Shown: positions 4,119-14,615 of the stretch, in pieces | Layout of the letters: every line of letters begins with the position of its first letter | Numbering within the stretch: the stretch's first letter is position 1 | Assembly: GCA_027858235.1 (NCBI GenBank) | Contig: JAQIDC010000067.1 | Location: 1 to 36,408 of the forward strand | Length of the DNA: 36,408 bases | Direction of reading: 5' to 3' | Source of the DNA: Patescibacteria group bacterium | GTDB taxonomy: Bacteria; Patescibacteriota; Patescibacteriia; Patescibacteriales; BM507 | Position numbers and translations under genes: made by a program | The notes under the pieces: generated by a model | Databases searched by the model: none | What the model saw: the letters and a program-made list of their open reading frames with translations, nothing else | Told to the model about the DNA's origin: nothing

Positions 4119-4267
4119 ATTTTCACTAATTATAAAATTGATTTATTTATTTTACTTTGCTAATATGGGGGTAATCTTACATTAAAGCTTGCTTGTCCTG
4201 TATTACTAAAAAAATAAGCCCGCACCAAAAAACTTTGCTATTATATCTAAATTATAAATATATACTT

Positions 4268-5461
4268 ATGCCAAAACCAGCTCAATTACCACTGCCCGAA
4301 GAAGGTGAAAGCAAAATTGATGTATTTCGCAAACAGGACGTCAGAAAAATTATTCATAAAAAAGAATGGTGGTTTTCTGTTAAGGATGTACTCGAAGCAC
4401 TTACTGACGCTACTGATGGTACAGAATATGCAGCCGACCTACGCAAAAGTGACTCTAATCTTGACACGGCATACACTGAAATCGTCAAAGAACTACCCTT
4501 TTATTCAAAAGGTGAAAATATTAATTTAGAGTTTACTAGCATCGAAGGTCTTTTTCGATTAATGCAATCTGTCCCAACCGAAAAAGCGGAACATTTTAAA
4601 AAGTGGCTAGCAAAGGTGGGTTTTGAACGACTACAAGAAATAAACAACCCCGACCTAGCGATTAAACGTGCAATGACAATCTATCGATCCAAGGGGTATA
4701 GCGATGAATGGATTGACGCAAGAATTAGAAACAAAGCAAGCAGAGAGTTAATAACCAAGGAATGGAGTAAAAGAGGGGTAGCCTCACATATATCACTTCT
4801 TACAGATGCAATTTCAGAAGGAACGTTTGGAATAAAAACTGCAAAACATAAAGAAATCAAAGGGTTAGCCAAACAAAGCTTAAGAGATAATATGACACCG
4901 ATAGAATTAACCTTAACAACACTTGGGGAACAGGCAACTAAAGAAATTACGCAAAGCATTAAGCCAACAGGTTTACAACAGAATATGACTGTAGCCCAGC
5001 AAGGTGGAAGAATAGCGGGGGCTGCCCGTATAAATATTGAGAATGCTACAAACAAAAAAGTTGTTTCTTCTACTAACTACCTGACAGACCAACAAAGAAT
5101 CAATAATTCAAAAGAGAGTGCAGAATTTGATAAGGCAATGAAAAAATACATAAAAATTAACACTAAAAATAGCAATCCACAAAATGGAGCAAAGTTGGGT
5201 CTATCCAGCGGTGAAATAGTTGAGAACAAAAATTTTAGTGGTCCTCTTAAAATAATAGTTAACGAATCTTTTAACGAAAAAGCTTCATCGGATTTCAAAA
5301 ATATAATTCAAGATTATGTTGGTGATGATAAAGTATTTTTTAAAGTTACAAAAGATGGCGACCCAAGTATCTTCGAAACTGGCCATAAGGTAGATAACTG
5401 CTCTTCTCTTCATAATGAATTAAAAAAGAAACTTGGTGACTTAATAACTATTATTCTATAG
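4268..5461 (+). CDS. BRO-N / DinD-like phage antirepressor
   Basis: This 397-residue protein starts with a BRO-N DNA-binding domain (about residues 12-125): FRKQDVRKIIHKKEWWFSVKDVLEAL, then a SIEGLFRLMQ stretch and EHFKKWLAKVGFERLQE. A DinD-like helical part follows (about 130-245), with KHKEIKGL and RDNMTPIELTLTTLGEQAT. BRO-N proteins act as antirepressors or regulators in phages and large DNA viruses, and DinD is a damage-inducible relative. The last 70 residues resemble the small OB-type C-terminal domain of DNA polymerase III alpha (KVDNCSSLHNELKKKLGD). The ATG at 4268 is preferred over 4193 because a TATA-rich promoter lies directly ahead of it. It may switch the element between maintenance and excision. 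Confidence 0.8.
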   Translation: MPKPAQLPLPEEGESKIDVFRKQDVRKIIHKKEWWFSVKDVLEALTDATDGTEYAADLRKSDSNLDTAYTEIVKELPFYSKGENINLEFTSIEGLFRLMQSVPTEKAEHFKKWLAKVGFERLQEINNPDLAIKRAMTIYRSKGYSDEWIDARIRNKASRELITKEWSKRGVASHISLLTDAISEGTFGIKTAKHKEIKGLAKQSLRDNMTPIELTLTTLGEQATKEITQSIKPTGLQQNMTVAQQGGRIAGAARINIENATNKKVVSSTNYLTDQQRINNSKESAEFDKAMKKYIKINTKNSNPQNGAKLGLSSGEIVENKNFSGPLKIIVNESFNEKASSDFKNIIQDYVGDDKVFFKVTKDGDPSIFETGHKVDNCSSLHNELKKKLGDLITIIL

Positions 5462-5577: not shown

Positions 5578-7629
5578 TTATTCTACAATAAAGTTATAGA
5601 TATTCTTCGCTAACTCATATGCTATATTTTCACCGTTATTGTCAAATAAATCTATGGTCATTTTATCCTTTTGCATTATTTGACTTGCTTTTTTACAAAA
5701 ATCTCTTTTATCACTTACTGTCCCCGAAGAGCTAGAAAATAACCTCTTTCTTAGTCCTTGATTTTCAGCTACTATTTTATTTTCAATAAATCTACCTAAG
5801 TAAACATCCCTATGAGAATATCGTCTTTTCAGTCCTTCTTTGATTACAACATTAACGTTCTTATTTTTTGGATAACTTTCAATAATTTTTTTTATTAAAC
5901 TAATTGGCAAAACATTCTCTATTTCTCTGCATGGCAATTCATAAAAATCATTTCCCATTGCCTCTCTTAATTTCTTAATTCTCATTTTCTTTTTTGTTGT
6001 TTCTTGATTTTCGCTAGGCTTGACATTGTAGCCATCGCTATCAACCACAAGAAAAGCCTCACCACATAATCTCTCTATATTTATTGGCATCTCTTCCTCG
6101 TCTAAAAAAGACCAATGAGTAATATTATTTCCGCCATATTCAACAAAAGAATAGTCTATATCTTCATTAATTTCTTTAAAATTATTATCTTCACTTTTCT
6201 TTTTTTCGCTATACATTCTTAAATACTCTCGTATATACCACCTATCAGAAATACCTTCAACCCAAATAGTCTTATTACTCAAAAATATAGAAGAGTTTTG
6301 AACTCCAAGTAGCTTCAATGTACTACTATCACCTTGACTAACTTGTTTTATTACTTTTTTATCTCCAACATCTTGCCTAAAATTATAAACAGAAATCCCC
6401 TCATAATCCAAGGTTAAATCTAGTAAATGGTTTGAATGCGTAGTTATAAAATACTGATGGTTTTTACCGTATTTACCATTAACTGCCTTAAAAATTTCTA
6501 TTAACCTTCTTTGCATACCTGGATGCAAATGAACTTCTGGCTCTTCAATAAAAAACAAACCGTCATCACAATCAAATAAAGGGAATGTTAAAATAATTAA
6601 GGCCTGAACGCCATCACCATAATCGTAAATTTTATGCTCCTTGTCTCCAATTTGCACCAATAACACCTCATCGCTCTTCTCGTTACCTTCCTCCCCTGGA
6701 ATTAAAGTTACCTCATTAACATTAAAAATATATTCAGCTAGAAATCTTTGATACTTCTCAACCTTTTTTCTTTCTTCCCTCTTGTTTAAAAGCATTTTTC
6801 TAATTCTCCTGTACATGTCCTGCCCCGTAAAAACAACATCTGGTATATACTTAGCTGGTGATGAGCCATCATAATTCTTAGAATAGTATGCATCATGAAC
6901 CCTGTCTTGAAAAAAATCTCCTGAATTATTTTTCCCATTCCTGATTTGTGAAGAAAGTATAGTTATATCAACTAGCCAGTCATTAAAGCAATGTAAATTT
7001 CTAAGCGTTGGAATGTAATATTTTTTAAAATCAACATATGAAAAATCACACTTTTCTAACTCATCAATTATTCCATCTTCACTAATCAATAAACCTTGTA
7101 ATTCATTTTTAAATATTTCAGGCGAACCTCCGCGATTCTGAACATTAGAAATGTTTTTAGAAATAATTTCAGCAAACAAATGCTCCAGCTCTTTCGATGC
7201 CGAGTTTATTCCAACCACTTTATTATCTGTAAGAATACCGCTATGAAACGAAAGTGTTTTTATTAAAGCTTCAATGTTCGCAATAAAGCTCTCCCTCAGA
7301 TATTCTTTATTGCCAACTTTAAACCGAACAATATTATCATGTTTCTCTACGACTAAAGATAGATTCTCTTTTACAGTAATTAATTTATTCAATAGTTTAT
7401 CATGGTTATCGTCAAGTTCAATCCTTAAAAAGCTTAAATTCCTAATTTTTGATAAAGCTCTCATGAACCGACTTTTCCCCGAATTATTTGCTCCAACAAA
7501 AATATTTATATGTGAAAGACTAGCAATTTCCTCCAAGATATTTCCTTGAGTATCATAATAATTCTCAAATTCTCCACAATCCTCCGTGCTAATTTTGATT
7601 TTTGAAAATTTATACTTTTTGTTATCCAT
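5578..7629 (-). CDS. OLD-family ATPase with TOPRIM nuclease domain
   Basis: This 683-residue protein has an ABC/SMC-type ATPase half. Walker A is VGANNSGKSRF (about residue 50), the Walker B region is GLFFIEEPEVHLHP (about 370), and the H-loop is QYFITTHSNHLLDL. The TOPRIM half begins TIWVEGISDRWYIREYL (catalytic Glu about residue 470) and continues to FLVVDSDG, the DxD metal site, and a NVLP helix region. This is the OLD (overcoming lysogenization defect) architecture seen in phage P2 Old, in GajA of Gabija and in other defence nucleases. No UvrD-like GajB is next to it, so it resembles a stand-alone class 1 OLD. The ATG at 7629 is chosen; the TTG at 7662 overlaps a TATAAA-like promoter. It is the probable anti-phage cargo of the element. 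Confidence 0.9.
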   Translation of the reverse strand: MDNKKYKFSKIKISTEDCGEFENYYDTQGNILEEIASLSHINIFVGANNSGKSRFMRALSKIRNLSFLRIELDDNHDKLLNKLITVKENLSLVVEKHDNIVRFKVGNKEYLRESFIANIEALIKTLSFHSGILTDNKVVGINSASKELEHLFAEIISKNISNVQNRGGSPEIFKNELQGLLISEDGIIDELEKCDFSYVDFKKYYIPTLRNLHCFNDWLVDITILSSQIRNGKNNSGDFFQDRVHDAYYSKNYDGSSPAKYIPDVVFTGQDMYRRIRKMLLNKREERKKVEKYQRFLAEYIFNVNEVTLIPGEEGNEKSDEVLLVQIGDKEHKIYDYGDGVQALIILTFPLFDCDDGLFFIEEPEVHLHPGMQRRLIEIFKAVNGKYGKNHQYFITTHSNHLLDLTLDYEGISVYNFRQDVGDKKVIKQVSQGDSSTLKLLGVQNSSIFLSNKTIWVEGISDRWYIREYLRMYSEKKKSEDNNFKEINEDIDYSFVEYGGNNITHWSFLDEEEMPINIERLCGEAFLVVDSDGYNVKPSENQETTKKKMRIKKLREAMGNDFYELPCREIENVLPISLIKKIIESYPKNKNVNVVIKEGLKRRYSHRDVYLGRFIENKIVAENQGLRKRLFSSSSGTVSDKRDFCKKASQIMQKDKMTIDLFDNNGENIAYELAKNIYNFIVE

Positions 7630-7662
7630 ATTTTTATTACTATGCTTAAATTTATATCTCAA

Positions 7663-8044
7663 ATTTCTTTAAGAAATCTCACTCTTCAATTTATGTCCTA
7701 CGCAGTCCATTGTTTTTCTTAATAATAAATTTATTAAAACTAATTTATAATTATATAATAGCTAAATAACGCCCTTATTAAAAGGATTAAAATCTTAACA
7801 ATTATTTATACTAAAAGTCAAATTATCTATCATCTATTTACCAAAAATATGTTATTAGCATTTCTAAAATTGCTTAAAGAACAAAACACATGGCAACATT
7901 GCTTTAAACAATAACAAGCCAGATTCACTGTTCAAAATGTAGTGAACTAATACACAAAATTGAAATATTTTTTAAATATGTTAATGTAAATATACAATTA
8001 AATATAAATATTGGCCTAACCCTTTAAATTCTTGAAGGTATGGT
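7663..8044. other. Non-coding AT-rich gap
   Basis: Nothing beyond very AT-rich sequence with scattered possible -10 boxes. It carries the promoter side of the minus-strand OLD-type gene and leads into the structured RNA. Confidence 0.5.
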
Positions 8045-8163
8045 TAAAAAACCCCGAACAAACATAAAGACGACATTCCGTCTGGTTTCTGTTTGTTCGG
8101 TCATTACTCGAAAGGGTGATGGATTTCCGCAAGGAAGTCACCAGTACGGGGTGTCTTTTTTGT
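8045..8163 (+). ncRNA. Structured RNA of about 115 nt, class not recognised
   Basis: Nested stems are visible: outer ACCCCG (8051-8056) with CGGGGT (8147-8152); AACAAACA (8057-8064) with TGTTTGTT (8090-8097), enclosing AGACG/CGTCT (8068-8072/8079-8083); CATTACT with GGTGATG around a CGAAAG loop (8102-8121); and a GCAA tetraloop hairpin ATTTCC/GGAAGT (8123-8138). GGTGA (about 8115-8119) and TCACC (8138-8142) offer an alternative pairing. A T tract follows the closing stem at once, as in a terminator. It could be an independent small RNA or a leader RNA ending before the zinc-ribbon gene at 8199. It does not match the riboswitch classes I know. Confidence 0.55.
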
Positions 8164-8198: not shown

Positions 8199-8426
8199 AT
8201 GGAAAATGGAAATAAAAAATGTCCTTTTTGCAAAGAGGAAATAAAAGAAGAAGCCGTTATTTGCAAACACTGTAATACACAATTAGAAATAGGAGCAGAC
8301 CCAAGCAGAATGTTTGACGCAAGAAGAGGCGATAGGGCATTTAGGTTTTTGAAGAAATTAATTATGTTAGTAATAATTCTAGCCATTTTCTTCTGGGGTG
8401 TAGGAACCCTTTTTATGTCAACGTAA
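8199..8426 (+). CDS. Zinc-ribbon, single-helix membrane protein
   Basis: This 75-residue protein has an N-terminal zinc ribbon, KCPFCKEEIKEEAVICKHC (two CxxC knuckles), a short linker with GDRAFRF, and one hydrophobic helix (LIMLVIILAIFFWGVGTLF) at the C-terminus. The ribbon would face the cytoplasm. Similar ribbon-plus-helix proteins are common and uncharacterised. The next gene begins with a closely related ribbon, so the two probably arose by duplication. It follows the structured RNA by about 35 bases and may be controlled by it. Confidence 0.75.
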   Translation: MENGNKKCPFCKEEIKEEAVICKHCNTQLEIGADPSRMFDARRGDRAFRFLKKLIMLVIILAIFFWGVGTLFMST

Positions 8427-8552
8427 AAAAACATGATTCTTCCAGAGCATAGCAATAAAATAGCAATGGTACTATTTTAAATATAATTAATTTGTTTTCA
8501 TAATGATAATACTTAAATTTATAGCTGGAATTTACAACTAAACCTAAAATAT

Positions 8553-9659
8553 ATGAATAATAACACAAAAAAATGTCCATTCTGTGCAGAAGAAATCAAA
8601 TATGAAGCAATTAAATGTAAACATTGTGCTAGCGATTTGCCTGAGCACTCCAAGAAAGAAGCAGTTGAGATAAAGCAGGTGAAGATAGAGGAAGGTAAAA
8701 ATAGCAAGAAAGAAAGAAAGGAGGAACAGAAAAGAGATAAATATTTAGCTAAAAGACATTATGGGCTTATTGGTTTTATTGTAGGGATGTTTTATTATTT
8801 TATATCAATACCTATTTTAATTCTTTGGTACATTTGGAAAGAAACAAAACTTACTAGAAAAAACAAGCTAATAAGTACGATAATTATCATAGTAATTTAT
8901 ACTCCATATATAATCCTATCAATTCACAACAATAGGCCACCAAGCATAACCATTTTAGAACCAAATAATAATTTTCAAACTCAAGCAAACAGTATTGAGA
9001 TAAAAGGTATGGTCGATCCCCAAAATGCTACTATCATATTGAGCGACAAAAAAATAGTAGCCACGGATGGTATTTCTTCATATTTGGGAGACAAAAAAAT
9101 AGTAGCCACGGATGGTATTTTTTCATATATAGTAAAATTAAATCATGGAGAAAATAATTTTAATTTTATAGCATATAATAAGAACAAAAAAACAGAAGCC
9201 AATATTACAGTAAGTCGTATCCTGACAGAAGAGGAAATAGCAGAGAGAGAACAAAAGAAGAGAGAAGCTGAAGAGGCCAGAATTAGAACAGAGAGAGAAG
9301 CTGAAGAAGCCAGGATTATAGCAGAAAAGAAAGCGGAGGAAAGAAGAATAACAATTGAACGAGAAGCAAAAGAACGAGAGGCAGAAAGGTTGGCCGAAGA
9401 AAAGAAATGGGCACAATCTCCAGCTGGACAGTTACAAGCAAAATACCTATGGTCTAAAGAAGCCTGTGAAAAAGTAGTAGATAAAAAAATTTGGATTGGA
9501 ATGGAATATGAAATGTTAGTAGAGATACGTGGAAAACCAAATAGTGCAAATCCTTCTAATTATGGAGATGGAACAGAATGGCAATGGTGCTGGCATGGAT
9601 TTAGTCCATTCTGTTTTTATGATAATGATGGTGACACGTTAATTGATAGTTGGAACTAA
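8553..9659 (+). CDS. Zinc-ribbon membrane protein with Ig-like, coiled-coil and BamE-like parts
   Basis: This protein has 368 residues. Order: zinc ribbon KCPFCAEEIKYEAIKCKHC (residues 7-25); a charged linker; two hydrophobic segments around residues 70-125; an Ig-like or glucodextranase-type beta domain beginning PSITILEPNNNF (about 135-225); a Glu/Arg-rich coiled coil (about 228-290); and a C-terminal segment IWIGMEYEMLVEIRGKPN resembling the SmpA/BamE fold. The Ig-like part contains a perfect 15-residue tandem duplication. The domain mix suggests an envelope protein that senses or scaffolds, but no function can be assigned. It is linked to the preceding gene by the shared ribbon. Confidence 0.75.
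   Translation: MNNNTKKCPFCAEEIKYEAIKCKHCASDLPEHSKKEAVEIKQVKIEEGKNSKKERKEEQKRDKYLAKRHYGLIGFIVGMFYYFISIPILILWYIWKETKLTRKNKLISTIIIIVIYTPYIILSIHNNRPPSITILEPNNNFQTQANSIEIKGMVDPQNATIILSDKKIVATDGISSYLGDKKIVATDGIFSYIVKLNHGENNFNFIAYNKNKKTEANITVSRILTEEEIAEREQKKREAEEARIRTEREAEEARIIAEKKAEERRITIEREAKEREAERLAEEKKWAQSPAGQLQAKYLWSKEACEKVVDKKIWIGMEYEMLVEIRGKPNSANPSNYGDGTEWQWCWHGFSPFCFYDNDGDTLIDSWN
9045..9134 (+). repeat. Tandem 45 bp duplication inside a gene
   Basis: The unit starting at 9045 recurs at 9090 with very few changes and adds 15 residues (DKKIVATDGI...) in frame to the Ig-like domain of the surrounding protein. The near identity at silent positions shows that it is recent. Confidence 0.9.
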
Positions 9660-10756: not shown

Positions 10757-11467
10757 ATAAACAAAAACCACACAAAACCAATTAAGACACTACGGGGATT
10801 ATACCCTAATTTAGCAGCTTCTTGGAATGTAATGACTTCAAAAGGTTTTGGTAACTCAGAGTTCGCTGAAGGTGGAACACCAAATGAAGATGCAACAGGT
10901 TACGCTAGACGTTCAGCTATCTATAAAGAATTAGGTAAAACTAAATCTATTACAGATAAAATGTTGGCCGCAGGAAAATCTTTCCTAGACCAAGAAGCAG
11001 AACAAACAGAAGTAGCTATTAGAGAAACAATCGAAGATGAGGAACAATACATTATCACTGGTGACGCTACTACTAGCCCATTACAGTATGATGGATTAGA
11101 TAGTTATATCTCAACTAACATCACTGACGACAATAACAATGCGTTAGGATTTAGAACAGATTTAATTGACGCAGCAATTCAGACTTTGCTTAATTCATAC
11201 GGAATGAGAGCAACAGCTATTTACTGTTCTTACGGAATGCAAAGAGCTATTAATAATTCTCTTGGTGGAGATGTAAGAGTTAACCTAGACCAAACTAATG
11301 AAGTTTCTTCTGGAGTTAATGTTACTTCAATTCAAACATCTATTGGTAAACTACCTATCATTAATACTTATGGTATTTCTGACGATAGTTCTACTTACGC
11401 AGGTTCAACTGTATCTGATTTATACATTGTGACTGAAAAGGCACGTGGTCAAGATGCACTATTTTAA
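10757..11467 (+). pseudogene. HK97-type major capsid protein remnant (SU10-like)
   Basis: The open frame begins right after the stop at 10754-10756 and has its first ATG at 10832 (211 residues). Residues before that ATG (TLRGLYPNLAASWNV) fit the protein but have no start codon. The core resembles SU10-like HK97-fold capsid proteins: GFGNSEFAEGGTPNEDATG, then RRSAIYKELGKTKSITDKML, the helical EAEQTEVAIRETIEDEEQYIITG, and the beta-rich QYDGLDSYI to LPIINTYGI. Full-length relatives have about 300-400 residues, so both ends look shortened. No portal, protease or terminase gene is near. It is a fossil of the phage ancestor of this element, although an expressed short protein cannot be excluded. 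Confidence 0.7.
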
Positions 11468-12962: not shown

Positions 12963-14615
12963 ATGAGCGAAAAAAACAGAGTAATCAAAGGTGTTGCATA
13001 CATAAGAGAGAGCACCGAAGAGCAGGACAAAGGCTTCTCTCCTGATAATCAGGAAAGGACCATGAAAGAATATGCAAAGAAAAATAATATCAATATAATT
13101 AAAATATACAAAGATTTAGTGACTGGCACTTCAGCTCTTAAGCGAGATAATTTTCAGCAGATGATAAAAGCGGGAGAAGAAGGGCAATTTAAAATTATTC
13201 TTGTATATCACACATCACGTTTTGCAAGGAATGTTAGAGAGGCAAGAAAATATAAAGAGTACTTAAGAGAAAAATTATTAATTGATGTAACATCAGTTAC
13301 TCAACACTTCGGCGACTGGAATGACCCCAGCGCTTTTTTGAATGAAGGAATCAACGAACTTTTCGATGCCTATTATTCAAAACAGTTAAGTTTTTGGATG
13401 CGCTCTGCATTTAAAGAAAAAAGGAGACAAGGGCTACAATTAGGGAATCCACCGCTAGGATATGTTAAAAAGAAATTAGGCTTTGATGTGGAACGAAAAA
13501 GGCCAATATATTCTAAAGAGTGGACCGTTGATAAAAAAGAATCACAATTAGTTAAAAAAATATTTAAAATGTATTCAACTGGAAATTACTCGTATGCTGA
13601 TATTGCTGAGGAAATAAATAAAACGGGTATAAAAACTAAATACGGATATTTATTTACCTATACATCAATTAAAGATATTCTGAAAAATAAGTCGTATCTT
13701 GGACAAGTATTTTCACCTCGAAGGAATTATCCAACATTACCAGGCAAACACAAAGCTCTCATCAAAGAATCATTGTTTAATAACGTTCAGAGTGCCATAG
13801 AGGAGCGGAGAGGGACAAAGGGACGACCAGTTGCTCAACATAGATTTTATCTCTTACAAGGGCTTGTGTATTGTTATAGTTGCAAAAAACATTTAAAAGG
13901 GAAAGAGAATGATGAAAATGCAAAGATGTTACCTCGTATGTACTGCCAAGCATTTAAGGCAACAAATAAAAATGAATATTTAACGTATGGGTGCAAATTC
14001 AGAAGAGAGGCGAGAGAATGTACACAAAAAAATGTAAGGGTTGAAATCATTGATGAACAGGTTATTAATTTTATAAAAGGATTAAATGTACCTGACGATA
14101 TTATCCAAATGACACTTCAAAAATTAAAACAAAAATTTAGTAGCACTAATAAATCAACGCCCGCCATGAAAAGGGTCTCACAATTAAAAAGAAGAAAAAA
14201 TAAAATAAATTTTCAGTTTCAGAATACTGATGAATTAAGTGAAGATGATTACCTTGAAAATTTAAGAACAATAAATATTGAATTAAACAAATTACAAGCA
14301 ACAGACATGGGCGGAATGACTAACACAGCAATAAATGCATACATAAATCAAACAGAAAAATACATTAAAGACTTTAAAATGTTTTGGGATACACTTGAAA
14401 AAGAAGAAATGCAAAAATGGATACACATGACAATTAAGAGAATATGGGTTAAAGACAAGAAGGTTGTGGCGATTGAACCACATGATGAATACAAAATACT
14501 ATTCACTATACATATGAAAGTCTTGTGTCATTGCCCTCTAGGCACCCCAAGCGAAAACACTCCTTTTTTAAGGAGTGTTTTTGATTGGGTGGTTTGCGGG
14601 TTGAAAACCCTCTAG
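12963..14615 (+). CDS. Large serine recombinase (integrase of the element)
   Basis: This protein has 550 residues. The N-terminal resolvase domain (about 1-150) carries the catalytic serine in VAYIRESTEEQ (Ser14), with RDNFQQMI, YHTSRFARN and the following helix. The recombinase domain (about 165-290) includes GNPPLGYVKKK and LKNKSYLGQVF. A zinc ribbon follows (GLVYCYSC, MYCQAF, YGCKFRREARECTQ; about 300-360), then a coiled-coil tail. Large serine integrases insert and excise DNA between short attP and attB sites with a 2-base core. The last 26 residues are encoded by the attR junction, so the tail is created by integration; in a circular form it would end differently (stop at 1230-1232). Confidence 0.93.
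   Translation: MSEKNRVIKGVAYIRESTEEQDKGFSPDNQERTMKEYAKKNNINIIKIYKDLVTGTSALKRDNFQQMIKAGEEGQFKIILVYHTSRFARNVREARKYKEYLREKLLIDVTSVTQHFGDWNDPSAFLNEGINELFDAYYSKQLSFWMRSAFKEKRRQGLQLGNPPLGYVKKKLGFDVERKRPIYSKEWTVDKKESQLVKKIFKMYSTGNYSYADIAEEINKTGIKTKYGYLFTYTSIKDILKNKSYLGQVFSPRRNYPTLPGKHKALIKESLFNNVQSAIEERRGTKGRPVAQHRFYLLQGLVYCYSCKKHLKGKENDENAKMLPRMYCQAFKATNKNEYLTYGCKFRREARECTQKNVRVEIIDEQVINFIKGLNVPDDIIQMTLQKLKQKFSSTNKSTPAMKRVSQLKRRKNKINFQFQNTDELSEDDYLENLRTINIELNKLQATDMGGMTNTAINAYINQTEKYIKDFKMFWDTLEKEEMQKWIHMTIKRIWVKDKKVVAIEPHDEYKILFTIHMKVLCHCPLGTPSENTPFLRSVFDWVVCGLKTL
14518..14546 (+). other. attR junction, 3' part of the split tRNA-His
   Basis: Left of CC (14534-14535) lie the element arm blocks AAGTCT (14518-14523) and GTCA (14527-14530). 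To the right, CTC closes the T stem and TAGGCAC (14539-14545) closes the acceptor of the tRNA-His begun at 1094, with C73 at 14546. The junction lies inside the recombinase gene. Confidence 0.85.

What the first reader, a model, noticed from the sequence alone, without database searches (positions are those of the whole stretch)
8045..8163. Unrecognised structured RNA with nested stems and alternative pairing
At least five helices, a GCAA tetraloop, a closing stem that doubles as a terminator, and two mutually exclusive pairings (CATTACT/GGTGATG or GGTGA/TCACC) are visible in 115 bases. It is far more GC-rich than its surroundings. This is what a riboswitch-like attenuator or a phage-element small RNA looks like. 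It sits between the OLD-type gene and the zinc-ribbon genes.
Basis: partly seen in the sequence, partly recalled or inferred. Interest (0 to 1): 0.65.

Follow-up and report, generated by a model that had tools for sequence, protein, structure and literature searches.

The report
LOOT RNA leader of a Patescibacterium
The structured RNA is real but not new: it is a LOOT RNA, an RNA family known only from comparative genomics and without an assigned function. Comparing about 170 relatives suggests that LOOT RNAs are switchable mRNA leaders placed in front of surface-protein and restriction genes, a fifth of which carry a copy of one RNA strand right at the start codon they could control.

Summary
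In detail: a strongly folded, GC-rich RNA (z -5.4). It is not unrecognised. Rfam RF03000 (LOOT) matches 8013-8139 at 84.2 bits (cutoff 46.4).

In two separately fetched samples of Patescibacteria (171 loci usable for most tests), LOOT looks like a 5' leader. It has a -10-like box 12-13 nt before a conserved ACAAYU. The nearest downstream gene is on the same strand in 81 of 87 cases, usually starting about 55 nt after LOOT. These genes are mostly surface or secreted proteins, plus DNA methylases and nucleases. LOOT also has an unannotated 10-bp pseudoknot helix ending in a U-tract.

In 36 of 171 loci (control about 0.2-0.3%) the central-helix 5' strand is duplicated just before or over the next gene's start codon. 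Orthologues change both copies together. This suggests a strand-swap translational switch. The set-2 rate (16/84) repeats a pattern defined on set 1.

The window's LOOT has the leader and pseudoknot but no start-codon copy, so the translational switch is not supported there. The signal sensed is unknown. No expression data were available.

The parts
7994..8012 (+). ACAATT leader start; inferred 5' end of the transcript near 7994. The -10 box here is poor.
   Evidence: Family-wide: TATAAT-like box in 65% at -36..-12 (17-23% elsewhere), 12-13 nt before ACAAYT in 51 of 80 loci; window sequence read. No transcript data.
8013..8045 (+). P1 hairpin of LOOT (8013-8016/8042-8045, 8021-8027/8032-8038) with the conserved CCUAAC / AUGG internal loop
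   Evidence: Rfam RF03000 alignment; helix columns 95-99.6% paired in 86 relatives.
8046..8051 (+). A-rich linker before P2
   Evidence: Conserved in alignment A1. An AAA run also precedes the start-codon copy in 34 of 36 loci that have one.
8054..8100 (+). P2, central helix: 8054-8064 (CCGAACAAACA) with 8090-8100 (TGTTTGTTCGG)
   Evidence: Rfam alignment. 156 different P2 5' strands in 173 loci. 10-mer found nowhere else in the own genome.
8068..8083 (+). P2a apical hairpin (8068-8072/8079-8083); its 3' part is also in the 5' strand of P5
   Evidence: Sequence and alignment A1.
8072..8155 (+). P5 pseudoknot helix: 8072-8081 (GACATTCCGT) with 8146-8155 (ACGGGGTGTC); crosses P2; not in the Rfam model
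   Evidence: Homologous columns 118-127/204-213: 90.7% paired, all 10 pairs with changes on both sides; 10-bp helix in the window.
8102..8121 (+). P3 hairpin (8102-8109/8114-8121) with invariant GAAA loop
   Evidence: 98.4% paired, all 8 pairs with changes on both sides; loop near invariant.
8122..8139 (+). P4 hairpin (8122-8128/8133-8139) with GCAA loop; end of the Rfam model
   Evidence: Rfam alignment.
8156..8161 (+). U-tract directly after P5: terminator-like 3' end
   Evidence: CTTTnT at about +12..+16 after the Rfam end in 66% of 171 loci against about 3% elsewhere.
8199..8426 (+). ORF 75 aa: zinc ribbon plus one hydrophobic segment; gene immediately downstream of LOOT (ATG at +60)
   Evidence: DZR E 6.4e-5, below the Pfam cutoff.
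8553..9659 (+). ORF 368 aa: N-terminal zinc-ribbon motif, hydrophobic segments, Glucodextran_B-like domain. Resembles proteins that follow LOOT directly elsewhere (L080, L086).
   Evidence: Glucodextran_B E 7e-6, just below the Pfam cutoff; Glucodextran_B in 4 of 145 LOOT-downstream genes; shared motifs read.

Best explanation
The element is a LOOT RNA (RF03000) of a Patescibacterium and most likely acts as a cis-regulatory 5' leader of the gene behind it, here the small zinc-ribbon membrane protein at 8199 and possibly the 8553 gene. Transcription starts about 10-20 nt upstream, the RNA folds into P1-P4, and the apical part of P2 pairs with the 3' tail (P5) to form a pseudoknot ending in a U-tract. 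I infer that forming or not forming P5 sets transcription termination against read-through. In about a fifth of LOOTs, but not in this one, a second layer is likely: the start-codon region of the downstream gene is a copy of the P2 5' strand. The P2 3' strand could then pair with its own partner (start codon free) or with the start codon region (translation blocked); P5 crosses both pairings. The trigger is unknown. Shown by sequence: membership, P5 covariation, gene position and orientation, -10-like box, U-tract, the start-codon copy and its co-change with P2. Inferred: transcription start, termination, repression, and the direction of regulation.
For: RF03000 at 84.2 bits. Nearest downstream ORF on the same strand in 81, opposite in 6; nearest upstream ORF 33 same, 54 opposite. 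-10-like box and ACAAYT at fixed spacing. P5 covariation. U-tract. Start-codon copy, 9 nt or more: set 1 20/87 against 0.18% of mismatched pairs, set 2 16/84 against 0.29%, none in the mirror window upstream. Orthologous genes with different P2 have matching copies: L106/L271 67.6% identical, L059/L095 67%, L246/L265 62%. P2 and the copy pairing have similar predicted energy, mean -20.0 and -19.5 kcal/mol. In G359 five of seven LOOTs carry different P2s, each matching its own start codon. Downstream genes look membrane or secreted in 75% (set 1) and 62% (set 2), against 28% of neighbouring genes.
Against: No RNA-seq, probing or reporter data. The window's LOOT and about 79% of loci lack the start-codon copy, and their start regions show no antisense match to LOOT above control, so the translational layer cannot be the family's universal function. 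P5 as an intrinsic terminator would be unusual: it spans roughly 65 nt and crosses P2. Downstream genes are diverse and give no hint of a ligand. The window's own -10 box is weak. Rfam types LOOT as an sRNA gene. The copy was first noticed while reading set 1, so set 1 is exploratory; set 2 is the confirming test, but it shares a few genera with set 1 and holds at least one near-duplicate (L274 = L059).
Confidence: 0.7

Rival explanations
1. LOOT is a free-standing trans-acting sRNA, terminated at the U-tract, that pairs with mRNAs through the P2 3' strand; the adjacent gene is only one target.
For: Rfam types it as sRNA; it has a -10-like box and a terminator-like U-tract.
Against: Strict same-strand position in front of a gene. 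In four genomes tested, all with LOOTs lacking the cis copy, 10-12 nt of the P2 strand occur nowhere else in the genome. Several LOOTs per genome have different P2s matching only their own start codon. Little room for a promoter between U-tract and start codon.
Confidence: 0.15
2. LOOT is a ligand- or protein-sensing leader (riboswitch-like) whose conserved P1 internal loop and GAAA-capped P3 bind an effector; P5/U-tract and the start-codon copy are its output devices.
For: Near-invariant CCUAA, AUGG and GAAA; intricate pseudoknotted fold; leader position.
Against: Not tested for binding; downstream genes (DNA methylases, nucleases, surface proteins) are not a metabolic pathway, so no ligand can be guessed. 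It refines rather than contradicts the best explanation.
Confidence: 0.3
3. P2 strands and the start-codon copy are DNA operator half-sites for a protein rather than RNA pairing partners.
For: P2 is an inverted repeat and the copy a third site; DNA-level recognition cannot be excluded from sequence.
Against: 156 different P2 sequences in 173 loci would need as many repressor specificities; the neighbouring P5 and P3 helices covary as RNA pairs, G-U included; the copy sits at the start codon on the coding strand.
Confidence: 0.05
4. LOOT is only a stabilising or terminator element without regulation.
For: Most loci lack the start-codon copy; U-tract present.
Against: Does not explain the start-codon copies or their co-change with P2 in orthologues, or the gene types behind it.
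Confidence: 0.08

Closest known systems
LOOT RNA (Rfam RF03000; ZWD-derived family, PMC7779021)
   Same: Full-length match 8013-8139 at 84.2 bits; P1-P4 and conserved residues present.
   Different: The Rfam model stops at P4 and lacks P5, the U-tract, the 5' ACAAYU and the start-codon copy. Rfam calls it an sRNA gene; the context here suggests a leader. PMC7657543 reports many cross-covariations in LOOT; the passages found there do not describe these features.
Translational attenuators of the ermC type
   Same: In the copy-bearing loci one strand could pair with either of two equivalent partners, one of them covering the ribosome binding site; PMC13148051 describes the mutually exclusive stem-loops of ermC.
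   Different: LOOT has no conserved leader peptide (frame not conserved) and is pseudoknotted; trigger unknown.
Transcription attenuators / riboswitches with an intrinsic terminator
   Same: Leader position, intricate conserved fold, helix directly followed by a U-tract.
   Different: The helix next to the U-tract is a long-range pseudoknot helix, not a local hairpin; no ligand known.

Membership tests
LOOT RNA (RF03000) | Score above the curated gathering cutoff over the full model | tested here: met
   84.2 bits, cutoff 46.4, model 1-121 complete
LOOT RNA (RF03000) | P1, P2, P3 and P4 helices with conserved CCUAA, AUGG, GAAA | tested here: met
   cmscan alignment and A1
LOOT RNA (RF03000) | Is transcribed as an RNA | not testable with these tools
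   No expression data; promoter-like sequences only
ermC-type translational attenuator | Mutually exclusive pairing that includes the start region of the downstream gene | tested here: not met
   Not met in the window (P2-3'/start region rank 0.66); met in 36 of 171 LOOT relatives
ermC-type translational attenuator | Leader peptide | tested here: not met
   Frames from the P1 AUG are not conserved
Riboswitch | Direct ligand binding that changes expression | not testable with these tools
   Needs in-line probing and reporters
Phage-borne small RNA | Recurrent in viral contigs | tested here: not met
   Pattern hit 4 IMG/VR contigs, one a true LOOT; the pattern covers only one loop form

The most novel reading that the evidence does not exclude
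LOOT RNAs are a family of pseudoknotted strand-swap leaders in Patescibacteria. Each carries its own locus-specific 'address' helix; in about a fifth of loci the start codon region of the downstream gene is a copy of one strand, so the leader can capture its own start codon and no other. They sit in front of accessory surface-protein and restriction-modification genes and would be a natural set of mutually insulated riboregulators.
Probability: 0.5. Interest if true: 0.78.

Novelty: new member of a known kind. Interest (0 to 1): 0.55.

Why it matters
LOOT has no assigned function in the sources I could read, and Patescibacteria are mostly uncultured. The start-codon copy and the P5 pseudoknot give LOOT a specific, testable cis-regulatory mechanism and link it to the genes through which these small cells meet hosts and phages (surface proteins, methylases, nucleases). 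Natural, mutually insulated strand-swap leaders would also resemble engineered riboregulators. For the window itself the result is modest: one more LOOT, of the kind without a start-codon copy.

Tried and rejected
Coding function (ORF from the conserved AUGG): stops and unbiased phases, rejected. P2 pairing with the window's own start region: rank 0.66, none. Trans copies of the P2 strand: none in 4 genomes, the own genome included. Other LOOT-start-region complementarity in loci without the copy: equal to control. Phage element: hardly any IMG/VR hits. Zinc-ribbon protein relatives in viral contigs: none. Integron attC-like site, because GCCTAAC fits the attC core pattern I remember: set aside on reading (no matching second core, LOOT at the front of genes and not between cassettes); no dedicated test was run. 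LOOT outside Patescibacteria: of 13 oddly labelled records scanned, two hold true LOOTs (L146 Methanofastidiosum MAG, L163 Bacteroidetes MAG), possibly mis-binned contigs; not pursued. The original description (10.1093/nar/gkx699, my recollection of the reference) is not held, so I cannot exclude that it mentions some of these features.

Full report
What it is. Rfam release 15 matches RF03000, LOOT RNA, at window 8013-8139 (+), 84.2 bits against a gathering score of 46.4, over the whole model. The stretch folds far better than shuffles (z -5.4) and is GC-rich for its surroundings. The own genome holds one copy. LOOT occurs in 83 of 380 genomes of the phylum sample and 104 of 384 of one other class, up to 7 copies per genome; the other held genome of the window's genus has none.

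Structure. I aligned 86 LOOTs with flanks. P1 and P3 are paired in 95-99.6% of cells. A helix outside the Rfam model, P5, pairs the apical part of the central hairpin with the 3' tail: 90.7% of cells paired and all ten pairs with changes on both sides. For P1, P3 and P5 together the covariation score is 0.73, against 0.26 for shuffles and at most 0.19 for slid partners. Per locus, the true tail gives a helix of 9 bp or more in 90% against 17% for tails of other loci. P5 crosses P2, so it is a pseudoknot. It is followed by a U-tract at +12 to +16 (66% of loci against about 3% elsewhere). In the window P5 is 8072-8081 with 8146-8155 and the U-tract is 8156-8161.

Context. For 173 LOOTs from 128 genomes I fetched flanks in two rounds. 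In set 1 the nearest downstream ORF is on the same strand 81 times and opposite 6 times; the nearest upstream ORF is mostly opposite (54 to 33). Among loci without the copy described below, 115 have a candidate ATG at +34..+110, at a median of +54. A TATAAT-like box stands 12-13 nt before a conserved ACAAYT in 51 of 80 scorable loci, which places the inferred transcript start at ACAAYU. The genes behind LOOT have a hydrophobic segment in 75% (set 1) and 62% (set 2), against 28% of neighbouring genes; the comparison set comes from set-1 flanks for both, and the hydrophobicity test is crude. Pfam finds DNA methylases, staphylococcal nuclease homologues, DUF4352, zinc ribbons, Glucodextran_B and peptidoglycan-binding domains.

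Start-codon copy. While reading set 1 I saw the P2 5' strand repeated before the next start codon. With the window fixed at +20..+95 and 9 nt or more, set 1 gives 20 of 87 loci against 0.18% for mismatched pairs. Set 2, fetched afterwards and scored with the same rule, gives 16 of 84 against 0.29%, and the mirror window upstream gives none in either set. 35 of the 36 copies lie at +37 to +54; the exception is L083 at +77, and there the match lies inside the chosen ORF, so it is doubtful. In most the start codon is within 5 nt or overlaps the copy; L080 has it 9 nt on and L268 has no ATG in reach. AAA precedes the copy in 34 of 36 (34% at the same positions in other loci). Orthologous genes whose LOOTs differ in P2 carry copies matching their own P2: methylases L106 and L271 (67.6% identical), L059 and L095 (67%), L246 and L265 (62%). 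The predicted energies of P2 and of P2-3' with the copy are similar. A few copy-bearing loci open only short or broken frames at that ATG (L031, L032, L034, L077), and set 2 contains a near-duplicate of a set-1 locus (L274 = L059), so the effective number is slightly below 36.

The window. Its LOOT belongs to the majority without a copy: the P2 10-mer occurs nowhere else in the genome, and its start region shows no pairing with P2-3'. What holds for the window is therefore membership, P5, the U-tract and the position 60 nt before a zinc-ribbon membrane-protein gene. Termination, read-through and a start-codon switch are inferences, the last only for relatives.

Mechanism. Most likely a cis-acting leader. 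P5 and the U-tract suggest control of read-through. In copy-bearing loci P2-3' can swap from P2-5' to the start region, with P5 compatible with either as a pseudoknot, which would block initiation. The direction of regulation and the trigger are unknown. The closest functional analogy is translational attenuation of the ermC kind (PMC13148051), without its leader peptide.

Limits. The loci are related and multi-copy, so they are not fully independent; the mismatched-pair controls do not remove relatedness, although the 156 different P2 strands in 173 loci make common descent of the matches unlikely. The P2 strands were found by a simple helix search, which can misplace P2 (for example in L097). 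No transcript data were available.

Noticed in passing
window 10832-11467 and 12963-14615: SU10-type major capsid protein fragment (211 aa) and a serine recombinase, with a Bro-N protein at 4193-5461: remains of a prophage or mobile element near the LOOT.
   Followed up: partly
window 5578-7662 (-): OLD-like AAA ATPase gene (AAA_15/AAA_21) divergent from the LOOT.
   Followed up: no
window 8520-8553: ACAACTAAACCTAAAATATATG just before the second zinc-ribbon gene resembles a decayed LOOT 5' end (ACAAYU..CCTAAAC); could be chance.
   Followed up: no
L102 (G097:C25), L103 (G097:C40): A 3,658-base contig has LOOT at both ends and a 5,021-base contig ends in LOOT, all with the same P2: probably several near-identical LOOT copies that broke the assembly.
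   Followed up: no
L074 (G113:C3:17612-18107): Two LOOTs in tandem, each before a homologous small gene (57 and 77 aa), with different P2 strands.
   Followed up: no
L114 (IMG/VR contig), L146 and L163: LOOTs in one viral contig and in MAGs labelled Methanofastidiosum and Bacteroidetes; possibly mis-binned or truly transferred.
   Followed up: no
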